Below are positions 6,695-32,838 of a stretch of DNA of 32,838 bases, in pieces. Each line of letters opens with the position of its first letter. Within the stretch, counting starts at the first letter, position 1. The notes below the pieces were generated by a model. That model was not told the origin of the DNA and made no database searches. It saw only the letters and a program-made list of their open reading frames with translations. The position numbers and the translations under genes are program-made. Source of the stretch: Thioploca sp. (GTDB lineage: Bacteria; Pseudomonadota; Gammaproteobacteria; Beggiatoales; Beggiatoaceae); assembly GCA_012032555.1 (NCBI GenBank), contig JAAUSR010000059.1, positions 1 to 32,838 on the forward strand, read 5' to 3'.

Positions 6695-6889
6695 AAGTAT
6701 TTACCTACCTTTTCCAGTGAGACAATAAATTTCCTCTAAAACCCTTCTCCATAAAGCTAGGATAGTCTATTCAATGAAAAAATGTCAACTTAAACAAATT
6801 AAATTATAAATAAAAATATATTGCTCTTTCTAAAACCGACTTTCTTTAATCAGGACTTACTAAGAAGAATAATTTCATTAAGCCAGGTA

Positions 6890-6953
6890 GGATGGGCACT
6901 GCCCACCCAGAAGAGTGTGAATTCTAGTGATGAGGGGTGTGCGGTGCACACCC
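6890..6953. repeat. pair of short palindromes, unit 1
   Basis: The first is GGATGGGCA-C-TGCCCACCC (6890-6908). The second is GGGTGTGC-GGT-GCACACCC (6935-6953). They resemble the dispersed GTAGGGTGGGC...CCTAC palindromes common in filamentous sulfur bacteria and cyanobacteria. The family name is not certain. Confidence 0.7.
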
Positions 6954-7058
6954 TACATTGGCTATTCACTAATCTCCACGGTAATTGTATCGCGATTCAA
7001 AATCAACAATCCTGAGGTTGGTAACCGATAACCAAAGTAAATATTTAACAGCCAGGTA

Positions 7059-7126
7059 GGGTGGGCACTGCCCACCCAGAGGAGTGTAAATTCTAGTTAG
7101 TGATGAGGGGTGTGCGGTGCACACCC
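7059..7126. repeat. pair of short palindromes, unit 2
   Basis: GGGTGGGCA-C-TGCCCACCC (7059-7077) has perfect 9-bp arms. GGGTGTGC-GGT-GCACACCC (7108-7126) has perfect 8-bp arms and is followed by CTAC. They start 8 bp past the giant gene's stop and may form its transcript 3' end. Confidence 0.75.
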
Positions 7127-7134
7127 TACGTTGG

Positions 7135-10100
7135 CTATTCATTAATTTCCACGGTAATCGCATCGCGATTCAAAATCAACAATCCTGAGGTTGGTAACCG
7201 GTAACCAAAGTAAATATTTAACCGTCCTGCCGCGGGGAATTGACCTTGATACATCGACACTACTTGAGTGGCTTTCAATACTACCTTGCGGAAAGTCACT
7301 AAGTTAGCTAAATCATTATCCCAAGGTAAAATTTTATCTTGATCATCTAGCATGTAGTAATGTGGTTTACTTTCTGGCGAGTTCAATGGTTGGTATTCAG
7401 CATAAACAATGAGTTCAGCGGTTTGCCCAATCTGTTCTGGATCTGGACACAGTTGACCTTTCACTATCACAGAATCAGTGAGTTTTTGAGTGATTTGCTG
7501 CTGAAAAGCACCCTGGTTAACAGCAATACCACCGCTGACTTGTGTGAGTGTGTCTAGCGGCTTACCTTGTAAATTGAAAGCGGTTATCCCTAATAACGGT
7601 AACTCAGTGTTACAAGTCGGTGTTGGTGGTGGAATAACTTCCTCCAACTTTAGGTTTCTTGGATCGTCACTGGCATTGATGAATTTAACTCCCTCGCCCA
7701 AAATCACCCCTTCTACCAATACGACATTTTCACCAAGAGTGACATAAGCGAGTTGACTATTGGCTTGAATTGTCAAATTCTCTAATAACGCAGGGGCGTT
7801 GGTATCGCCACTGAGGTTACCTTGTAAGTATCCACCCGTGAGATGAGTATTGGGAGCAAAGTGAACATCTTTAAAAGTACCGCCAATTAGGCTACGATTG
7901 TCAACCGTACCGGCTAAAGTACCACCTTGAATTTCAGCCCCGACAAAGTCAAAGTCTGTCATTTGACCTTGATTGTTAATCGAACCACTCACGGTTCCAC
8001 CGATTAATAAACCACTGGGCGCAATCGTTAGGTTGGAAACTAAACCGTTATTGTTTAAAGTTCCGATTAAAGTTCCATGAGCGAGACTGGTATTCTGATC
8101 AGTGACGAGATCAGTCAGAATTTGTCCCTGAGCATCACAAACACCATTAACGATACCCTGAGTTGGACACGAATTCATTGCTGCTAGATCAATCGTTATC
8201 ATCGCTTCTAATTCTTCGGGTTCTGGCGGTAATTCGGCTTCAGAGACCACCAGCAGCGTTGTTTCGGTTGTTGCTGTGGCGTTAGAATCACTTTGGGAAG
8301 TCGCAGTGATGGTAATCGTATCTTCCGCCCCGATAGTCGCGGGTAAAATGACATGGAGTGATAATTCCACTCTTTCTAACCCATTAACGGTTACCGTTGC
8401 CGGTAACGTATTGATTAACCAACCTTGAGATTCAATAACAGTTAGGGTATAGGTATCGGCGGTCGGACCGGCATTGAGAATTTCAACATCAATGGTTTGA
8501 TTGGTCACCGGGGTACCGATAATAATTCCACTACTTGATAGTGCGACTTCATGGAGAATTTTAGCGGAATAAGTTTCAATGCGGGATCTGGTGGTGGTTA
8601 AATTTTGCAAACTTTTTTCTGGTTCCAATAACACGGTATTAGAGAAAATACGGACAACTGGCGCGTTGAAAATGGAGGCGTTATTGTTCATCAAATCGAC
8701 TGTGCCACCTTGACCAGTAGCAAGGGTAATCGTTTCTGTGGCATTAATAGCATCAGTACTAAGTTGACGTAAATTGAGTTGTTGGTTATCACCACCAAAA
8801 ATAAGGACTGCTTGGCTGTCTTCATAACGCATATGACTACCGGATAACATCATTTCGGGTTCAGAAATAGCCTTACCATCGCCACCCGCTCTGACCACAC
8901 CAGAATTTTCTAAATTCGGTGCTGTCATCACATTGTTTCCTCCCTTACCTTTAGTCGCTAAATAGACGCAGCTTTTACTATCATTCAACGCCACTCTCGC
9001 ATCACCGCCATAACCGGAACTAATCATACCGTGGTTAACCAGTTGATTAGTTGCATTGATCGTCGTGTTGCCGCCATTACCACCTCCCGTGTTGCCATAA
9101 TTCCAACCATCGATACCCAGAAAGTATTGATCGCTATTAACTGAATCTCCAGGTTTTTTTCTACCATTACATTCAAAGTTCATTTGGTAGGCATTACTTC
9201 CTACCCCACCATTACCACCATCAGATAGCCATTGTTTATTACTATAAGCCGGCGCGATTTCTGGACCAATAATCCCTTCATTAGTAATAAATTTAGCATT
9301 GATAGAGATACTACCTCCTTTACCAGCTTTAGCTTTAACTGAATCACCTGTAAAGAAGTTGTGAGTAATATCGTCACCACCACGACCCGCTTTGATTGTC
9401 CCGATATTAGTAATCGATTCACTGGCATTGATCACCACGTTACTGCCAGGAGTAGCATGTATGTAATTAGCCGCAGAAGGTTCCAATTCATGAGGAACAT
9501 ATCCATCGATACCATCTGCACCGAGGATGTCACCGGCGTTATAAATATGTTCAGCCCGAACGACTAGTGAGCCTCGGTTCTGCCTGGTTAAGACACCACC
9601 CATTTCAATGCAAAGGGCCTTAACCCGGATTGAATTAGCTTCAATCATGTGGTTAGCTTGAATAAGTACGTTATCTTTTAGCTTAGGTTTAGTGCCGATT
9701 ATCCATTCATCTCCTACTTGTCTTGCCCAAGTATTTACACTACCACCATCACCACTCTCATTCGATCGGACGGTTATTGCTAAACAGGGATCGGTGACAA
9801 TAGTTCCTTCATAAGGTCGATAATTTTGTTTAGTGATAGTGACATGAATAGTATCGGTTGCTAATACCGGCTGTGATAATGGGACGGTTGTTATTCCACC
9901 GGTAGAAAGTTTTCTACCTAGGATTTCTCCATTGGCATTATTCTCTCTGGTAATGCTGATCAGGGCACCGGCAACATTGACACCGACATCAATAAGCTGT
10001 GTTCCTACGGAAAGTAGAGCAGCATGTGAAACATTGTTAAATGGTTGTGGTTCGCTAGTCCAGATTGACATGGTAGGATCGCCAAACCAGTGAAATATCT

Positions 10101-13100
10101 CGAAAGTCGTTTTGCGAGTATCACTTTCTCCATACTGCCCGGCATAATAATATTTGCCATAATTGAGCACTGACCCCATTTCCCACATCGGTTTATCAAA
10201 GGGCGTGCCGGTTGCCGTATATGACTTAACAAAATCAGGCCAAATGGCATCCATTAATCCCCAAATAAGGCGATCATTGTGACCGCTATAAGAAACCCGA
10301 GTGGCGGCAATCACTCCAACTGCTCCACCATTAGGATTTCGTTCCCACGCTTCCGAGAAATAGATAGGGAGAGCACTATCATTGGTTCCACTATTATCGG
10401 TTTCATTATCAAACCAACCGGTTCGACAATTGATACTCCAAACAACCGGTAGTTTATTGCCGTTAGTTAAGGCTTGGACATCATTGGTGGTATATTGGGG
10501 ATTAACCCAGCCCCAGTTGTCCCCATGGTCTCGATGGATTACCAAAAATCTGCCTTCATTAATTTTCTCTGTTATCTGCTGTGCATTACCATTCCATGGA
10601 AAGCCAGAGTCGCGGCGCAGATAATTCGGTATAGAATCGCCTTGGTCACCGGCTGGACCACCACTAAAACTCCACAATGCATTACTCCAATGGGTTGGAG
10701 TGATAGCCGGTTCGGTAACATAAATACGATCGACTTGATATTGATTCAGATAATTGGGATCAGAAAGATAAATAGCAATATCTTCTATGGTTTGGGTAAA
10801 TCTGCGGTTAGCCTGTCCATCTCCAGCTTGACAAGGTTGGTAGTCACAATCTTGAAAGTAAGCCGCTAGAGCTACTTTTTGGTAAAAGTCGCTGCCAGCA
10901 ATGGGATTTTTTTCATATTCAATGATATTATTAACTCTGGTTCTCGCTTCAGTAAGTGTGTCAACTGAAAGCCTTCCGAGACTAATATCAGGAAAATAAT
11001 CATTACCATCGACGGTGGCATAATACAGATCGGTACCAATATAGCCTTCACATCCGCCGCAATAGTCATTATAGGGATGCCAAGTCTCATAGTAAGGAGA
11101 AATAAATTCAGCATCACCAATAAGCAAAACATAAGTCGGTGGCGGATTCCAATTATTATAAGCCGTTTGGATAAAATTCTGAATCTGAACCGCTGTATTA
11201 CCCGTTTCAATGGTGGTTTTAACAATAGTTTCAATTCCCTTTTTCATTTTCCATTTAGCTAATGTATTAGCCGCTTCAAAAAATTCTGGATGGGTGATAA
11301 TAAGTAAAGAATTACCTTGTTCATAAGCTACTTCAGCCAGTGGAACTGCAGAAGCAGATGACGCTACTGCTGGGATATTCAATAATAATTTATTAAAAAT
11401 TGGTTCAAAAGCTGGGCTACGAAGCCGTTGATTTTTAATAAAGTAATTCTTACCACCTTGAAAAGAAACCCGAAGATGAATTTTAGAATAAACGCGTAAG
11501 GTTTGTGTAGCAGGATTAAATTGGACTGGAAATAATCGTAAAATGACAACCGATTGACCCCGAATTACCGCTGGACCTTCTAATTTAACCACTTCTGCGG
11601 GATAAAATTCATCACGGGCATAGAGATCTTTATTGAGGGTAAAAGGTGGTGGTGATGCATCCTCTAGATCAGCGGCGGGTGGTTGTGCCGGATAGACCCA
11701 ATATCCGGTTAATTCATCATAATGAGGTTCGAGCATTTCAACCTGGGCTTGAGCACCCACCGGGATTGCAATAAAATGACTCAGCATCGGCACTTGCGGC
11801 TTGCCTTCTTCCGTCGTCATCCCACCTTTAGGGATGTTCAATTGCTGATAGAGGTTGCCATCGTCGGCTACTTTATCAATCACATCCATCCCGGGCACAT
11901 CAATATTAATAGTCATTCCTTGTAAATTAGAGAAAGGTGTAGCTGTTCTTGGTGGCATTCCACTACTGGTAGCTAGATTAGTCATATCAAGTGGTACCCA
12001 CTGACCATCAAAATTTATCTTCACAAAAACCGCGTCACATTGCTTATCTTTGTCGATTATCACTTGACCATTTGGATCACAATCACCTTGCCATTGTTCA
12101 AATTGCCAATTCGTTTCTGGCATGGCCGTGAGAGTAACTGAGGTATTTGTAGCAAAAACAGCTTGACATTGATTACTACAATCAATCCCCGCTGGTGTAC
12201 TGATAATTTTACCTTGACCCATTGTGGTTACATTTAAAGAAAATGATGTTGCCAAGGGTGGCGTTACCGGCGTTGGTATTACTGGGGGTGGTGTTACCGG
12301 CGGTGGAGTTACTGATGGTGGTGTTACCGGCGGTGGAGGTGCCGTGCTATCGGTAGTCGTTGCAGATACTTCTGTACTGAAGTCACTGGTTAAATTATTT
12401 TGCTGAAAATTATGTGTAGGGGTATAAGTTTGCACCACGAAATAGTAAGTGGTATTCGGTGATAAATTCGTTACTACATAGCTAGTTGCACTCTTGTTAG
12501 GCGTAGCTGATATAGCTGGTGTATAAGGTCCACCGGGAGTGGTAGCATATTGTACCCAATAATAACCGCCATCGTTGGTATACAATATAGGTGTCCAATT
12601 GAGTTGAATACTATCTGCTGATAAAGTGATAGCAGTGATGTTGGTAGGTGGCACAGTTTGCGTTTGTACCCAAGCCTGATTCTTACTATTGAGGAAAGTG
12701 AGCAAAACCGGATCTTGAGTGGTTAATCGATTAAAACTTAATTCTAAATAGTTAAGATTCGTTAAGTTAACCAGTGAAGTTGGAATCAATCCAGTGAATT
12801 GATTACTATGTAAAGAAAAATGTTGTAACTGAGTTAAATTGCCTATCTCATTGGGAATCAAACCCGTAAGCTGATTACCATCTAAATTAAGCTCTTGCAG
12901 CTGGGTCAGAGAACTTAAATTGGGAATCGAACCAGTAAGATGATTGCTGTGTAGATAAAGCATTTGCAAATTGGTTAAAGTACTTAAATTCGGAATCGAA
13001 CCGGTAAGTTGATTATTATAGAAAGAAAGCTCTTGCAAATGAGTTAAAGCCGATAAGTCTGGTATAGAATCAATGAGTTGGTTATCGTCTAGGTAGATCT

Positions 13101-13755
13101 TTTCTAAATGAATCAAATCCATTATACAATTGGGAATCGAACCCGTTCGTTGGTTGTTGCTCAGATTGAGACTTATCAACGAACTCAATTGACATATCCA
13201 TTCTGGAATTGGGCCACTCGTGAATTGGTTATCGCTCAACCAGAGGAGTTGCAAGTTAGTCAAATTGCTTAAACTAGGGATATTACCAGTTAATTGGGTT
13301 TGGTTCAGATCGAGGAATTGCAAAGCAGTTAAACTATTTAGCCAAGTTGGCAGCGGACCGCTTAATTGACTAGAACTCAAATCTAAAAGTCGTAAAGTGG
13401 TTAACAAGCTCAAATCAGGAAACGAACCACTCAGATTTTTTTCTCCTCTATCAATGCCAATGATATGCACACCAATTGGATTCGCTGGGTCACTACAAGA
13501 AATGCCAGCCCAAGTACAAGGTGTATTGGTAATATTCCAATTATTCGTAGCGCTATCAGCCCAACTGGGACCATTAGTGTTGTTATAAAATTCAATTAAA
13601 ACTTCGCATTCAGTTTGGGGAATGTCGGTTACTGCTGTACAATCCGTTGCCGCTAGTACGCTCGGTAGCCAGAATAAATTGAAGATGACAATTGAAAAGA
13701 CAGGCAGTGAGAAGCAAGAAAGAGAGGGTCTTTTCTTACTCCAGTAAGTTATCAT
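7135..13755 (-). CDS. giant secreted LRR - fibronectin III - gingipain-like (C25) cysteine protease
   Basis: 2206 aa. ATG 13755 has AAGGAG nine bases upstream. Signal peptide: residues about 1-35, ending VLA|ATD. Residues about 45-110 are a plant-type LRR cap (EFYNNTNGPSWADS...CTWAGISC). About ten LRRs follow to about 355, with the L.G.IP signature of plant receptors. Next are a fibronectin III domain (about 366-465), a PPVTP linker (about 472-502), a Cys-containing bacterial beta-repeat (about 502-576), a propeptide-like region (to about 810) and a peptidase C25 domain (about 815-1235). The catalytic pair is visible: H1077 in HRDHGD and C1110 in SINCRTG. Their 33-residue gap equals that of RgpB His211/Cys244. 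After an Ig-like domain (about 1240-1320) come Gly/Asn-rich beta-helix-like stretches (about 1330-1720), an NPCBM/NEW3-like domain (about 1750-1840), a second beta-helix-like part (about 1890-2010) and a C-terminal beta domain. I see no type IX sorting domain. Proteolysis of external or surface proteins is inferred. Confidence 0.88.
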   Translation of the reverse strand: MITYWSKKRPSLSCFSLPVFSIVIFNLFWLPSVLAATDCTAVTDIPQTECEVLIEFYNNTNGPSWADSATNNWNITNTPCTWAGISCSDPANPIGVHIIGIDRGEKNLSGSFPDLSLLTTLRLLDLSSSQLSGPLPTWLNSLTALQFLDLNQTQLTGNIPSLSNLTNLQLLWLSDNQFTSGPIPEWICQLSSLISLNLSNNQRTGSIPNCIMDLIHLEKIYLDDNQLIDSIPDLSALTHLQELSFYNNQLTGSIPNLSTLTNLQMLYLHSNHLTGSIPNLSSLTQLQELNLDGNQLTGLIPNEIGNLTQLQHFSLHSNQFTGLIPTSLVNLTNLNYLELSFNRLTTQDPVLLTFLNSKNQAWVQTQTVPPTNITAITLSADSIQLNWTPILYTNDGGYYWVQYATTPGGPYTPAISATPNKSATSYVVTNLSPNTTYYFVVQTYTPTHNFQQNNLTSDFSTEVSATTTDSTAPPPPVTPPSVTPPPVTPPPVIPTPVTPPLATSFSLNVTTMGQGKIISTPAGIDCSNQCQAVFATNTSVTLTAMPETNWQFEQWQGDCDPNGQVIIDKDKQCDAVFVKINFDGQWVPLDMTNLATSSGMPPRTATPFSNLQGMTINIDVPGMDVIDKVADDGNLYQQLNIPKGGMTTEEGKPQVPMLSHFIAIPVGAQAQVEMLEPHYDELTGYWVYPAQPPAADLEDASPPPFTLNKDLYARDEFYPAEVVKLEGPAVIRGQSVVILRLFPVQFNPATQTLRVYSKIHLRVSFQGGKNYFIKNQRLRSPAFEPIFNKLLLNIPAVASSASAVPLAEVAYEQGNSLLIITHPEFFEAANTLAKWKMKKGIETIVKTTIETGNTAVQIQNFIQTAYNNWNPPPTYVLLIGDAEFISPYYETWHPYNDYCGGCEGYIGTDLYYATVDGNDYFPDISLGRLSVDTLTEARTRVNNIIEYEKNPIAGSDFYQKVALAAYFQDCDYQPCQAGDGQANRRFTQTIEDIAIYLSDPNYLNQYQVDRIYVTEPAITPTHWSNALWSFSGGPAGDQGDSIPNYLRRDSGFPWNGNAQQITEKINEGRFLVIHRDHGDNWGWVNPQYTTNDVQALTNGNKLPVVWSINCRTGWFDNETDNSGTNDSALPIYFSEAWERNPNGGAVGVIAATRVSYSGHNDRLIWGLMDAIWPDFVKSYTATGTPFDKPMWEMGSVLNYGKYYYAGQYGESDTRKTTFEIFHWFGDPTMSIWTSEPQPFNNVSHAALLSVGTQLIDVGVNVAGALISITRENNANGEILGRKLSTGGITTVPLSQPVLATDTIHVTITKQNYRPYEGTIVTDPCLAITVRSNESGDGGSVNTWARQVGDEWIIGTKPKLKDNVLIQANHMIEANSIRVKALCIEMGGVLTRQNRGSLVVRAEHIYNAGDILGADGIDGYVPHELEPSAANYIHATPGSNVVINASESITNIGTIKAGRGGDDITHNFFTGDSVKAKAGKGGSISINAKFITNEGIIGPEIAPAYSNKQWLSDGGNGGVGSNAYQMNFECNGRKKPGDSVNSDQYFLGIDGWNYGNTGGGNGGNTTINATNQLVNHGMISSGYGGDARVALNDSKSCVYLATKGKGGNNVMTAPNLENSGVVRAGGDGKAISEPEMMLSGSHMRYEDSQAVLIFGGDNQQLNLRQLSTDAINATETITLATGQGGTVDLMNNNASIFNAPVVRIFSNTVLLEPEKSLQNLTTTRSRIETYSAKILHEVALSSSGIIIGTPVTNQTIDVEILNAGPTADTYTLTVIESQGWLINTLPATVTVNGLERVELSLHVILPATIGAEDTITITATSQSDSNATATTETTLLVVSEAELPPEPEELEAMITIDLAAMNSCPTQGIVNGVCDAQGQILTDLVTDQNTSLAHGTLIGTLNNNGLVSNLTIAPSGLLIGGTVSGSINNQGQMTDFDFVGAEIQGGTLAGTVDNRSLIGGTFKDVHFAPNTHLTGGYLQGNLSGDTNAPALLENLTIQANSQLAYVTLGENVVLVEGVILGEGVKFINASDDPRNLKLEEVIPPPTPTCNTELPLLGITAFNLQGKPLDTLTQVSGGIAVNQGAFQQQITQKLTDSVIVKGQLCPDPEQIGQTAELIVYAEYQPLNSPESKPHYYMLDDQDKILPWDNDLANLVTFRKVVLKATQVVSMYQGQFPAAGRLNIYFGYRLPTSGLLILNRDAITVEINE
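12257..12340 (-). repeat. 15-bp minisatellite coding for a Pro/Thr/Val linker
   Basis: About five imperfect copies of a 15-bp unit (GGTGTTACCGGCGGTGGAG-like on the plus strand) encode PPPVT pentapeptides between the fibronectin and beta-repeat domains. The period is a multiple of three, so copy-number change would alter linker length without frameshift. Confidence 0.75.
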
Positions 13756-27101: not shown

Positions 27102-28817
27102 TCATGAATGCCCTAACATCAGCAACTGCTCTATCACTGGGCCTAACACCAGGGTAGGGAGATAAGTGAGCGCACCCACAATAATAATCACCCCAATCAG
27201 TAAGACCACAAATAACAGGCCATGCGTTGGCAACGAACCAACGGTCACCGCCAAGCGCTGTTTGCGCGCCAATGAACCCGCCATAGCGAGCACCAAGATA
27301 ATCACACCAAAGCGTCCTATCCCCATCACCACCGCCAGGAGGATATTGTAAAAGGGCGTATCTGCCGCTAATCCGGCAAAGGCGCTGCCATTATTGTTAG
27401 CGGCGGAACTAAGCGCGTACAACACTTCACTCAGCCCATGAGGGCCAGGATTAAAAATACTGGCTTTACCCACGAGTAAGGCGAGTGCTGTCCCCACTAA
27501 AATTAACAGCGGGGTGATGAGAATGCTGAGCGAAATCATTTTCATCTCAAAAGCTTCGATTTTTTTCCCCAGATATTCTGGCGTGCGACCAATCATTAAC
27601 CCAGCAATAAATACGGCTAGCAGCACCATGATTAACATGCCATACAACCCAGCCCCTACGCCACCAAAAATGACTTCTCCGAGTTGGATCAAGCCCAGTG
27701 GCACTAACCCACCTAACGGGGTAAATGAATCGTGCATGGCATTCACCGCGCCACAAGAAGCCGCCGTCGTAATGGTGGCAAATAAAGCCGAAGCAATAAT
27801 CCCAAACCGGGTTTCTTTCCCTTCCATGTTACCGCCGGCTTGCAGCGCGCTATAGCTTTGATCGACGCCGCTAAAGGCAGGATTTCCCTGTTGCTCAGCC
27901 CCGATTGCCGCCCAAGCCATCACGACAAATACGAGACTCATCGCGGCTAAAATCGCCCATCCCTGGCGCGTATCACCCACCATTTGTCCAAAGGTATAAC
28001 AGAGGGCGGCGGGGATTAAAAAAATCGTTATCATTTGGATAAAATTAGTGAGCGGTGTCGGATTCTCATAAGGATGCGCTGAGTTCGCATTAAAAAAGCC
28101 GCCCCCATTAGTGCCCAGCATCTTAATCGCTTCCTGCGAAGCCACAGGGCCCATCGCCAACACTTGACTGTGCTGAGGGGTTGGTAGAGGATGAAGGGGC
28201 TGATAAGCCGAAAAATTCTGAATAACGCCCTGACTCATGAATAATAGGGCCAAAAGTAAAGCGAGCGGCAACAACAGATAAAGAATACTTCGCGTCACAT
28301 CTACCCAGAAATTACCGAGCGTGGATTGATGATGACGAGTAAAGCCGCGAATCAGAGCAATGGCGACGGCAAGACCCGTAGCGGCTGATAGAAAATTTTG
28401 CACAGTTAATCCCAGCATTTGGGTAAGATAACTCATCGTGCTTTCGCCGGCATAACTTTGCCAATTGGTATTCGTCACGAAGCTAACGGCCGTATTCAAC
28501 GCGGTATCCGACTTGACCGCCCCGAACGCTTGCGGATTCAGCGGTAATAAGCCTTGAAGACGCTGTAAGGCATAAACGGCGATCATGCCCAGCAAATTAA
28601 ATAGCAGCATTGCGCCAGCATATTGTTGCCAGTTCATTTCAGTGGTCGCCTCAATGCCGCACCCGCGATACATGGCTTTTTCTAGCGGATAAAGCAGGCG
28701 GCTGAACTTCGGCAACCGACCGTCCATGATCTGCGTCATATAGCTGCCGAGTGGTTTGACAGTCAGCAGCAAGATACCCATAAAAAGACCTATTTGCAGA
28801 TAAGCATTCGGATTCAT
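27102..28817 (-). CDS. kdpA: K+-transporting ATPase channel-like subunit KdpA
   Basis: 571 aa, slightly longer than the E. coli protein (557). It has four repeated K+-channel-like units, with selectivity-filter blocks [46 protein letters not shown] and [14 protein letters not shown]. It binds and admits K+ selectively in the KdpFABC complex. Its ATG overlaps the kdpF stop by one base (TAATG). The first 87 or so codons exist a second time near 32 kb. Confidence 0.98.
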
Positions 28818-31781: not shown

Positions 31782-31874
31782 TCACTTGGTGAGTGTATCG
31801 ATCAAGAGATCGAGCAACAATTCGATGTCGGTGTCCGGTTCTGTTCCCGGCGTGTCGATCCCGTATAGTGATTC
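31782..31874 (-). pseudogene. 3' stump of an unknown gene cut at the kdp duplication junction
   Basis: Thirty codons (ESLYGIDTPGTEPDTDIELL, LDLLIDTLTK) and a TGA at 31784-31782 are open right up to the edge of the 390-bp kdp repeat at 31875. The acidic/amphipathic sequence looks coding, and its stop overlaps the alternative GTG of the secreted-protein gene, as in an operon. The 5' part is missing. The frame runs on for a few codons into the kdp copy (FKAYESLYG), so short homology at the junction is possible. Confidence 0.6.
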
Positions 31875-32145
31875 ATAAGCCTTGAAGACGCTGTAAGGCA
31901 TAAACGGCGATCATGCCCAGCAAATTAAATAGCAGCATTGCGCCAGCATATTGTTGCCAGTTCATTTCGGTGGTCGCCTCAATGCCGCACCCGCGATACA
32001 TGGCTTTTTCTAGCGGGTAAAGCAGGCGGCTGAACTGTGGCAACCGACCGTCCATGATCTGCGTTATATAGCTGCCGAGTGGTTTGACAGTCAGCAGCAA
32101 GATACCCATAAAAAGACCTATTTGCAGATAAGCATTCGGATTCAT
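31873..32145 (-). pseudogene. truncated kdpA copy (90 codons)
   Basis: This repeats the first 87 or so residues of KdpA ([20 protein letters not shown] ... [11 protein letters not shown]) with M27I and K37Q, then meets a TGA at the junction. Only two or so membrane helices and no selectivity filter remain, so transport function is excluded. It is preceded by a kdpF copy with the same TAATG overlap. Confidence 0.92.
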
Positions 32146-32268: not shown

Positions 32269-32838
32269 CAGGGCCACCGCATTAAAATTCGTGTCAACGT
32301 GATAATTTAGGAGTACTATGATTGAAATTTTGCCATCAGAGGACGGGTTATGACGGCTAGTATTATAGAACACTTTTCTACCTTAAAGGAGCCTCGAATA
32401 GAACGAAAGAAACTTCATGCCCTGACGGACATTATGGTGTTAGTCATTGGTGGAATCATTAGCGGTGCAGCCGGTTGGGAAGCAATAGAAGAATTTGGTC
32501 CCGAAAAGTTAGACTGGTTGCGTCAATTTATACCTTGACACAAGGGAATTCCCTCTCATGATTGTATTGCTTAGGTGATATCTAGGCTCTCAATCAAAGG
32601 ATTTCAAGAATGTTTCATGGCTTGGGCACAAACGGTTACGGCGCAAACGGGCGGTCAGCTTATTCATGTGGAGGGCAAAACCGCCTGTAGTTCTAGAGAC
32701 CAAAACCAGAATCGTAATCCGTTGCCTAGGGTCAGTGCATGGGCAGGGCAAAATCGCTTAGTTTTGGGACAGGAAGCGATTGAGGAAAAATCTAATGAAA
32801 TTACTGCGATTCCCAAGCGGTTAGCCTTACTGGAGTTG
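32269..32838 (+). mobile_element. ISAs1-family insertion sequence, left part (decayed)
   Basis: The left end appears to be CAGGGCCACCGCATTAAA at 32269-32286, similar to ISAs1-type terminal repeats (CAGGGC...GCATTAA) as I remember them. The transposase frame starts 64 bp inside. The element continues beyond the window, so its right end and target duplication cannot be seen. Confidence 0.7.
32350..32838 (+). pseudogene. ISAs1-family (H-repeat) transposase with in-frame stops
   Basis: ATG 32350 has GAGGA upstream. The N-terminus IIEHFSTLKEPRIERKKLHA and LTDIMVLVIGGIISGAAGWE is typical of ISAs1/H-repeat transposases. The frame hits TGA at 32536-32538 and a TAG in IA*VISRL near 32573, but continues in the same frame with GIPSHDC, FQECFMAWAQ, VEGKT, VSAWAGQNRLVLGQ and EKSNEITAIPK to the window end. 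The family's IDGKT (catalytic Asp) reads VEGKT here. Two stops plus that change mark it as inactive. Confidence 0.88.

What the first reader, a model, noticed from the sequence alone, without database searches (positions are those of the whole stretch)
7135..13755. Plant-type LRR receptor-like N-terminus fused to a gingipain-type protease
One secreted chain carries a plant-style LRR cap and repeats, FN3, and a peptidase C25 domain whose His1077/Cys1110 spacing (33) equals that of RgpB, followed by beta-helix-like arms. C25 proteases are best known from Bacteroidetes with type IX export; here no such sorting domain is visible. LRRs may choose the target that the protease cuts, making a self-contained recognition-and-cleavage device.
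Basis: partly seen in the sequence, partly recalled or inferred. Interest (0 to 1): 0.6.

Follow-up and report, generated by a model that had tools for sequence, protein, structure and literature searches.

The report
LRR-armed gingipain-like protease precursor
A bacterium probably related to Beggiatoa makes a giant exported protein in which a self-inhibited gingipain-type protease sits inside a leucine-rich-repeat scaffold that its genus uses many times over, a new combination of known parts that may act as a ligand-triggered protease.

Summary
On the minus strand (7135-13755) one 2206-aa protein carries a plant-like LRR cap and LRRs, FN3, an InlB-B-like domain, then a complete C25 zymogen: propeptide, Peptidase_C25 (3.9e-71) and the C25 Ig domain. 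H1077/C1110 fall on RgpB H211/C244. Two things were missed. (1) The LRR chassis is re-used without protease: paralogues have the LRR, InlB-B and C-terminal blocks but no C25, and C25 zymogens elsewhere lack LRRs. (2) The protein ends in a beta-solenoid plus Ig-like module with at least 40 matches in each of the two genomes of the genus, found in 32 of 36 family genomes and 0 of 21 others. Two T9SS marker families were not found in this genome. The LRRs lie upstream of the propeptide, so gingipain-style activation would cut them off the enzyme; I favour an LRR-gated latch over an LRR that steers the mature protease. Arg/Lys specificity is not supported: the propeptide plug residue (RgpB Arg126) is Asp696 here, and the pro/catalytic junction lacks basic residues. 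New variant of a known kind; mechanism inferred.

The parts
7135..13755 (-). whole gene, 2206-aa LRR-C25 protein (ATG at 13755, stop at 7135-7137)
   Evidence: orthologue L023:5628-12212:-
13648..13755 (-). aa 1-36, Sec-type signal peptide, likely cut after ...SVLA
   Evidence: sequence inspection; no signal-peptide predictor was run
12700..13647 (-). aa 37-352, LRRNT_2-type cap and plant-type LRRs
   Evidence: Pfam LRRNT_2 48-88, LRR families; PDB matches GSO1, FLS2; cap region in 20 of 23 family genomes searched
12406..12660 (-). aa 366-450, fibronectin type III domain
   Evidence: Pfam fn3 1.3e-7
12247..12354 (-). aa 468-503, Pro/Thr/Val-rich linker
   Evidence: sequence
12016..12246 (-). 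aa 504-580, InlB-B-repeat-like domain
   Evidence: Flg_new_2 2.1e-4, below cut-off; blocks of 51-57% identity in L066, L086 and L088
11431..11958 (-). aa 600-775, C25 propeptide (inhibitory prodomain); Asp696 at the plug position
   Evidence: Pfam Propeptide_C25 3e-27; Kgp and RgpB prodomain structures 3e-16 and 1.2e-13
11326..11430 (-). aa 776-810, pro/catalytic linker; no Arg or Lys from 790 to 833
10051..11325 (-). aa 811-1235, gingipain-type C25 catalytic domain
   Evidence: Pfam 3.9e-71; RgpB 7.8e-44 by profile
10525..10527 (-). codon of catalytic His1077 (RgpB His211)
   Evidence: invariant in 8 of 8 aligned C25 rows
10426..10428 (-). codon of catalytic Cys1110 (RgpB Cys244)
   Evidence: invariant in 8 of 8 aligned C25 rows
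9790..10050 (-). aa 1236-1322, C25 C-terminal Ig-like domain
   Evidence: Pfam Peptidase_C25_C 2.5e-8
8596..9789 (-). aa 1323-1720, Gly-rich beta-helix-like region, shared by chassis paralogues without C25
   Evidence: blastp blocks starting at aa 1314-1397 in a number of paralogues; fold itself not predicted
8221..8553 (-). aa 1735-1845, Ig-like domain
   Evidence: FixG_C 0.0033 and Ig_VWA7 0.13, both below cut-off; over cut-off in paralogues L076 and L059
7657..8190 (-). aa 1856-2033, C-terminal module part A: beta-solenoid
   Evidence: AlphaFold2 ten-residue mean pLDDT 74-96 for module residues 11-170; solenoids 4yc5 and 4kh3, Z 10.6 and 10.2; family-wide
7138..7623 (-). aa 2045-2206, C-terminal module part B: probable Ig-like beta-sandwich ending in an FGYRL-containing motif
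   Evidence: model of low to moderate confidence; 4ni6 Z 6.8, not above background; conservation

Best explanation
It is an exported, probably cell-surface, gingipain-type (C25) cysteine protease precursor in which a complete C25 zymogen cassette (propeptide, catalytic domain, C25 Ig domain, about aa 583-1326) lies inside an LRR chassis that this genus uses many times. Most likely working: Sec export by the signal peptide; passage of the outer membrane by a route that is not T9SS (perhaps T2SS); display through the beta-helix arm and the family-wide C-terminal module; protease held inactive by the propeptide. Because the LRR-FN3-InlB-B arm is covalently attached to the N-terminal side of the inhibitory propeptide, binding of the LRR to its ligand (a surface polymer or protein of a neighbour) would reposition the propeptide, release the protease and let it cut nearby proteins or itself free. 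Shown: domain order, conserved dyad, full zymogen set, chassis re-use, orthologue under purifying selection, no match to two T9SS marker families. Inferred: activity, display, insertion as the direction of change, the latch, the ligand, and a non-basic (perhaps Asp) cleavage preference.
For: Complete pro-C25-Ig set; dyad and overall alignment to RgpB and Kgp; dyad invariant in 8 of 8 family C25 rows. Chassis: paralogue L086 of G001 is collinear (aa 22-363, 505-580 at 51%, 1376-2033) but has 45 residues where this protein has 795 with the protease; L059, L067, L068, L076, L079 and L084 also share LRR and C-terminal blocks, and Pfam finds no C25 in the five LRR paralogues scanned (L059, L070, L076, L079, L084). 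Modularity: G035 has the same protease plus beta-helix (42% identity over aa 573-1920) with SdrD_B and two PKD domains in the LRR place. Kept as one chain in two species with dN/dS 0.13 (LRR) and 0.14 (catalytic). No SprA_N or Por_Secre_tail match in this genome; the SprA_N search rang at 6.8e-171 in G030, so it works. T2SSK-family match in this genome, 4.3e-15. Gingipain propeptides block S1 and must be removed for full activity (PMC4357240, section 13 read).
Against: No direct evidence for activity, localisation, a ligand or gating. The protease core could not be modelled (pLDDT 35.8). LRR caps are so common in this family that they may be plain adhesive spacers. The latch is argued from domain order alone; if the propeptide is never cut, the LRR would stay with the enzyme. 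A T2SSK match is also strong in G012 and G029 (weak in G023, G034), which lack the C-terminal module, so T2SS is not tied to it.
Confidence: 0.45

Rival explanations
1. One reading: the LRR arm binds the substrate or its cell and stays with the active protease (uncut, or held by the propeptide after cutting), so it steers cleavage.
For: Single polypeptide conserved in two species, LRR as constrained as the protease. No Arg/Lys at the pro/catalytic junction, so gingipain-style removal of the arm may not occur. A doubly uncleavable RgpB keeps some, 80-fold lower, activity (PMC4357240).
Against: The LRR is fused to the inhibitory propeptide, not to the catalytic domain; gingipains need propeptide removal for full activity. 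The same LRR chassis exists without protease.
Confidence: 0.25
2. LRR, FN3, beta-helix and C-terminal parts are generic adhesion and spacer modules; the protease is a constitutively matured surface or shed nutrient protease, as in adhesin-bearing gingipains RgpA/Kgp, and the LRR has no special role in its control.
For: The LRR cap region has 21 and 19 matches in the two genomes of the genus; in G035 the N-terminal arm is SdrD_B and PKD instead; C25 proteins of three other families carry no LRR (5 of 5 scanned).
Against: In RgpA/Kgp the adhesin domains follow the protease (recalled); here the extra arm precedes the propeptide.
Confidence: 0.27
3. It acts as a sortase for the C-terminal module, as the C25 protein PorU does for T9SS cargo.
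For: C25 matches occur in 25 of 36 family genomes (18 of them at E under 1e-30, 7 with weak matches only) and the C-terminal module in 32 of 36. NCBIfam's PorU model matches this protein at 79.6 bits, far below its cut-off of 420.
Against: G020, G025 and G026 have 25, 23 and 34 module matches and no C25 match; no SprA or sorting-domain match in G000.
Confidence: 0.03

Closest known systems
Gingipains RgpB / RgpA / Kgp (peptidase family C25, Porphyromonas gingivalis)
   Same: Propeptide, C25 catalytic domain and Ig domain in the same order; His-Cys dyad with spacing 33.
   Different: LRR-FN3-InlB-B arm in front of the propeptide; no T9SS tail or SprA match in the genome; Asp696 at the plug position of RgpB Arg126; no Arg/Lys at the junction; RgpB Trp284 position is Gly1158.
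PorU, the T9SS sortase (C25), and the PorU-like (my label) C25 proteins of this bacterial family, mostly about 700-1100 aa
   Same: C25 fold family and dyad; PorU structure 6za2 matches the family profile at 2.7e-32.
   Different: The window protein falls in the other of two C25 groups, with G035 and proteins of other families (midpoint-rooted tree, root forks only 86/79).
Plant LRR receptor-like kinases / receptor-like proteins (FLS2, GSO1)
   Same: LRRNT_2-type cap and LxGxIP-type repeats.
   Different: No kinase match in Pfam; the cap region is used across a bacterial family.
LRR chassis paralogues of the genus (for example L086, L079, L076, L059)
   Same: Same LRR, C-terminal beta-helix and terminal module; L086 also the InlB-B block.
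   Different: No C25 cassette (Pfam scan of five; L086 by blastp only).
Internalin-like LRR cargo of P. gingivalis T9SS (PG0350, PG1374)
   Same: LRR proteins listed as T9SS effectors of a gingipain-bearing bacterium (table passages of PMC5445135).
   Different: There LRR and C25 are separate proteins in the listed passages.

Membership tests
Peptidase family C25 | Significant match to the catalytic domain family | tested here: met
   3.9e-71, 240.7 bits against cut-off 23
Peptidase family C25 | His-Cys catalytic dyad in the family positions | tested here: met
   H1077 on RgpB H211, C1110 on C244; invariant in 8 of 8 rows
Peptidase family C25 | Inhibitory N-terminal propeptide and C-terminal Ig domain as in gingipains | tested here: met
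   Propeptide_C25 3e-27, Peptidase_C25_C 2.5e-8; inhibition itself not testable here
Peptidase family C25 | Catalytic residues adjacent in three dimensions | tested here: inconclusive
   Single-sequence model failed, pLDDT 35.8
Gingipain (Arg/Lys-specific) | P1-binding residues of RgpB: Asp163, Trp284 | tested here: inconclusive
   Trp284 aligns with Gly1158; the Asp163 column falls near Thr987 with no acidic residue from 980 to 990, but this stretch aligns poorly
Gingipain (Arg/Lys-specific) | Arg or Lys at the S1-plugging position of the propeptide, and an Arg/Lys processing site next to the catalytic domain | tested here: not met
   RgpB prodomain chain residue 107 (Arg126 if the chain ends at 229, my inference) aligns with Asp696; aa 685-706 and 790-811 without Arg/Lys in all 3 long proteins; nearest upstream Lys789. 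Role of Arg126/Arg229 from PMC4357240. By sequence only
T9SS cargo | T9SS C-terminal sorting domain and a T9SS in the genome | tested here: not met
   No Por_Secre_tail or SprA_N match in G000; 1 of 57 genomes (G030) has both. Only these two marker families were tested
Plant-type LRR receptor kinase | LRRNT_2 cap plus LRR ectodomain | tested here: met
   LRRNT_2 1.4e-4 over cut-off; FLS2/GSO1 matches
Plant-type LRR receptor kinase | Kinase domain | tested here: not met
   No kinase family among the 15 Pfam matches up to E 1
Known anti-phage defence protein | Match to a PADLOC model | tested here: not met
   0 families at E 0.01

The most novel reading that the evidence does not exclude
A ligand-gated protease: the LRR arm, welded to the inhibitory propeptide, is a sensor that unlocks a gingipain-fold enzyme which cuts after Asp rather than Arg/Lys (its propeptide presents Asp696 where gingipains present Arg or Lys), exported and displayed without T9SS by an undescribed family-wide C-terminal solenoid/Ig module.
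Probability: 0.2. Interest if true: 0.75.

Novelty: new variant of a known kind. Interest (0 to 1): 0.45.

Why it matters
C25 proteases are best known as T9SS-exported virulence factors of oral Bacteroidetes (recalled). A complete zymogen in a gammaproteobacterium without detectable T9SS markers, with a recognition-type arm on the propeptide, offers a natural test of how the propeptide comes off, which the review read here calls unknown in vivo (PMC4357240), and of whether C25 specificity extends beyond Arg/Lys. Paralogues that lack the protease are ready-made controls. The C-terminal module, not in Pfam and found only in one family in this sample, sits at the end of 16 of 17 and 19 of 20 fetched ORFs of the two genomes of the genus, and is a lead to an unknown display or secretion route.

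Tried and rejected
Structure of the protease core: the one job, single sequence, failed. Foldseek on the C-terminal module gave nothing at E 0.001; the second look gave beta-solenoids for part A (4yc5 Z 10.6, 4kh3 Z 10.2, antigen 43 7ko9 Z 8.5) and a Clostridium repeat domain (4ni6, Z 6.8) for part B, not above background. Plasmid and phage collections: no C25 relative. PADLOC: nothing.

Sortase idea rejected because genomes rich in the C-terminal module lack C25. Plant-to-bacterium transfer of this gene as a special event not favoured: the LRR cap region occurs in 20 of 23 family genomes searched; no tree with plant sequences was made. T2SS as a module-specific partner not supported; PF03934 also rang in 8 of 14 control genomes, some of which have no T2SS as far as I recall, so weak hits to it are unspecific. 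Frame or assembly artefact rejected: the same ORF, 83% identical end to end, is in a second genome that is one contig.

Literature (open-licence library only): no LRR-C25 fusion seen in the listings for 'Peptidase C25 + leucine-rich repeat + gingipain' (one review; passages read), 'Beggiatoa + C25' (one paper, abstract start), 'Beggiatoaceae + leucine-rich repeat' (none), 'C25 family + Gammaproteobacteria + type IX secretion' (none), 'leucine-rich repeat + cysteine protease + gingipain + fusion' (8 of 16 listed). One search (10 of 465 listed) gave nothing to the point. Kgp Lys129 as plug residue is recalled; the paper was not held.

Counts with limits: only 36 of 68 candidates were scored in G000 and in G001, so 40 matches each is a lower bound, and matches are not proteins (one ORF can give two). 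The tally that the module is C-terminal (16 of 17, 19 of 20, 13 of 29) is over fetched loci with a closed 3' end, chosen from the best listed matches; in the 29 from other genera it is not the rule. Of the 25 genomes with a C25 match, 7 have weak matches only, perhaps other caspase-like peptidases. NCBIfam hits to LRR effectors (XopAC, XopAE, XopL) are all far below their cut-offs and reflect the LRRs.


Full report
OBSERVATION. The ORF at 7135-13755 reads on the minus strand as 2206 aa without a stop. It begins with a Sec-type signal peptide (by eye). Pfam gives, in order, LRRNT_2 (48-88), LRRs (about 110-345), fn3 (369-445), a weak InlB-B repeat (526-577), Propeptide_C25 (608-770, 3e-27), Peptidase_C25 (818-1230, 3.9e-71) and the C25 Ig domain (1240-1318, 2.5e-8). 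His1077 and Cys1110 are 33 apart. A profile of 8 C25 domains matches RgpB at 7.8e-44 (4ief) and 9.9e-44 (1cvr); counting along the 1cvr row, His1077 falls on His211 and Cys1110 on Cys244. The dyad is invariant in all 8 rows.

CONSERVATION. Genome G001 of the same genus, a single contig, has the same protein end to end (2194 aa, 83% identity), in a different gene neighbourhood. Nei-Gojobori dN/dS is 0.13 for the LRR region, 0.14 for the catalytic domain, 0.12-0.26 for the other domains and 0.44 for the signal peptide. G035, another genus, has a 2147-aa protein with the same propeptide, protease, Ig and beta-helix (42% identity over aa 573-1920), but with SdrD_B and two PKD domains in place of the LRRs and carboxypeptidase-regulatory-like, DUF11 and VWA domains at its end. 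These are the 3 C25 matches with open frames over 2000 aa among 57 genomes searched. Peptidase_C25 matches occur in 25 of the 36 family genomes (18 at E under 1e-30, 7 weak only) and 0 of the 21 other genomes of that call; most of the strong ones lie in frames of roughly 700-1100 aa that I call PorU-like. In 369 genomes drawn over the class, Propeptide_C25 is found in 6 including this one; five C25 proteins from three other families (genomes G138, G239, G254, G382) have no LRR match at E 0.001. In a 27-row tree (midpoint root; root forks 86/79) the window protein pairs with G001; a long-branched protein of G138, another family, joins these two (94/90) inside a group with G035 (98/95), apart from the PorU-like proteins. 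This suggests that the protease moves as a unit without LRRs.

CHASSIS. Blast of the whole protein against the fetched ORFs shows paralogues with a related LRR region and related C-terminal 850 residues but no protease. The clearest is L086 in G001: aa 22-363, 505-580 (51%) and 1376-2033 of the window protein align in order, and 45 residues lie between the last two blocks where the window protein has 795. Pfam scans of five LRR paralogues find no C25; L086 was not in that scan. The LRR cap region has 21 matches in this genome, 19 in G001, and occurs in 20 of 23 family genomes and 0 of 13 others searched. So the LRR looks like the common part and the protease the newcomer. Insertion is inferred from this comparison; loss of the protease from the paralogues is possible in principle.

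C-TERMINAL MODULE. The last 351 residues have at least 40 matches in this genome and in G001 (lower bounds; matches, not proteins), and matches in 32 of 36 family genomes and 0 of 21 others. In this genome 16 of 17 and in G001 19 of 20 fetched ORFs carry it within 25 residues of their end; in other genera 13 of 29, the other 16 having 120-439 further residues. Pfam has no family for it; 8 of 28 members give weak hexapeptide hits and the PDB profile search gives nothing below 0.05. The model shows a confident beta-solenoid (part A) and a low-to-moderate-confidence sandwich (part B). By name it was found in a Thiotrichaceae MAG; the host is therefore probably a Beggiatoa-like gammaproteobacterium (inference).

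EXPORT. There is no SprA_N or Por_Secre_tail match in this genome; both ring in 1 of 57 (G030, estimated contamination 5%). In the controls SprA_N rang in none and Por_Secre_tail, below cut-off, in one Bacteroides. Other T9SS parts were not searched for. A T2SSK match (4.3e-15) suggests T2SS, but this family also rings strongly in G012 and G029, which lack the module. The route is unknown.

SPECIFICITY. In RgpB, Arg126 of a propeptide loop plugs S1, Asp163 binds the Arg side chain, Trp284 lids it, and cleavage at Arg126 and Arg229 activates (PMC4357240, section 13 read; it prints His221 where PMC12385285, passages, and one search give His211). In the alignment with the RgpB prodomain chain (1.2e-13) the residue opposite Asp696 is the Arg at chain position 107, which is Arg126 if the 210-residue chain ends at 229; in the Kgp prodomain (3e-16) it is the Lys of QPSMSK, which I recall as the Kgp plug Lys129 (counted by hand). 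Position 696 is Asp in G001 and Leu in G035, which has a 3-residue insertion there. Aa 685-706 and 790-811 have no Arg or Lys in any of the three long proteins. Trp284 aligns with Gly1158, and no acidic residue lies at 980-990 around the Asp163 column, where Arg984 and Arg985 stand; that region aligns poorly. Against this: Kgp aligns well in its SYWGED loop, where Asn1160/Asp1161 stand near the residue I recall as its specificity Asp, so a Lys preference is not excluded. I put non-basic P1 at about 0.7 (0.6) and Asp at about 0.3.

MECHANISM. Domain order is the main clue. A gingipain propeptide blocks the active site and has to leave. Everything N-terminal to it, including the LRRs, leaves with it or stays only by non-covalent hold. 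Thus the LRR is better placed to govern activation than to guide the mature enzyme. In G035 PKD domains occupy the same place, which suits exchangeable sensor or anchor arms. This is inference; the rival views, that the LRR stays and steers or that it is a mere adhesive spacer, are not excluded.

VERDICT. Real, conserved in two species of one genus, a new arrangement of known families. C25 membership is met on the sequence features tested, with the structural one inconclusive; membership among Arg/Lys gingipains and T9SS cargo is not supported.

Noticed in passing
window 7138-8190 and loci L029-L095: Family-restricted C-terminal beta-solenoid + sandwich module, at least 40 matches in each of two genomes, usually at the C-terminus of the fetched ORFs there; no Pfam family. 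Possibly a display or secretion tag of this bacterial family.
   Followed up: partly
L025:4461-7345 (G000 contig C39): The second C25 gene of this genome (PorU-like) is split over two frames, while the G001 counterpart (L027:2676-5564) is one 962-aa frame.
   Followed up: no
window 6881-7222: Tandem direct duplication of about 170 bp (94-95% identical) at the 3' end of the LRR-C25 gene; the second copy overlaps its last 29 codons or so.
   Followed up: partly
window 31873-32145 and 27102-28817: A 90-aa copy, 98% identical, of the N-terminus of a KdpA-like gene of the same window lies near the contig end beside a transposase-like ORF (32350-32538; names by eye); this end of the window has higher G+C (0.44-0.57) than the rest (0.36-0.43).
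   Followed up: partly
G030:C34 and G030:C167: The only relative with SprA_N and a T9SS sorting tail; the genome has an estimated 5% contamination, so these may be foreign contigs.
   Followed up: no
G017 contig C400 15799-24144: Three C25 domains in separate frames lie within 8.4 kb in a family genome.
   Followed up: no
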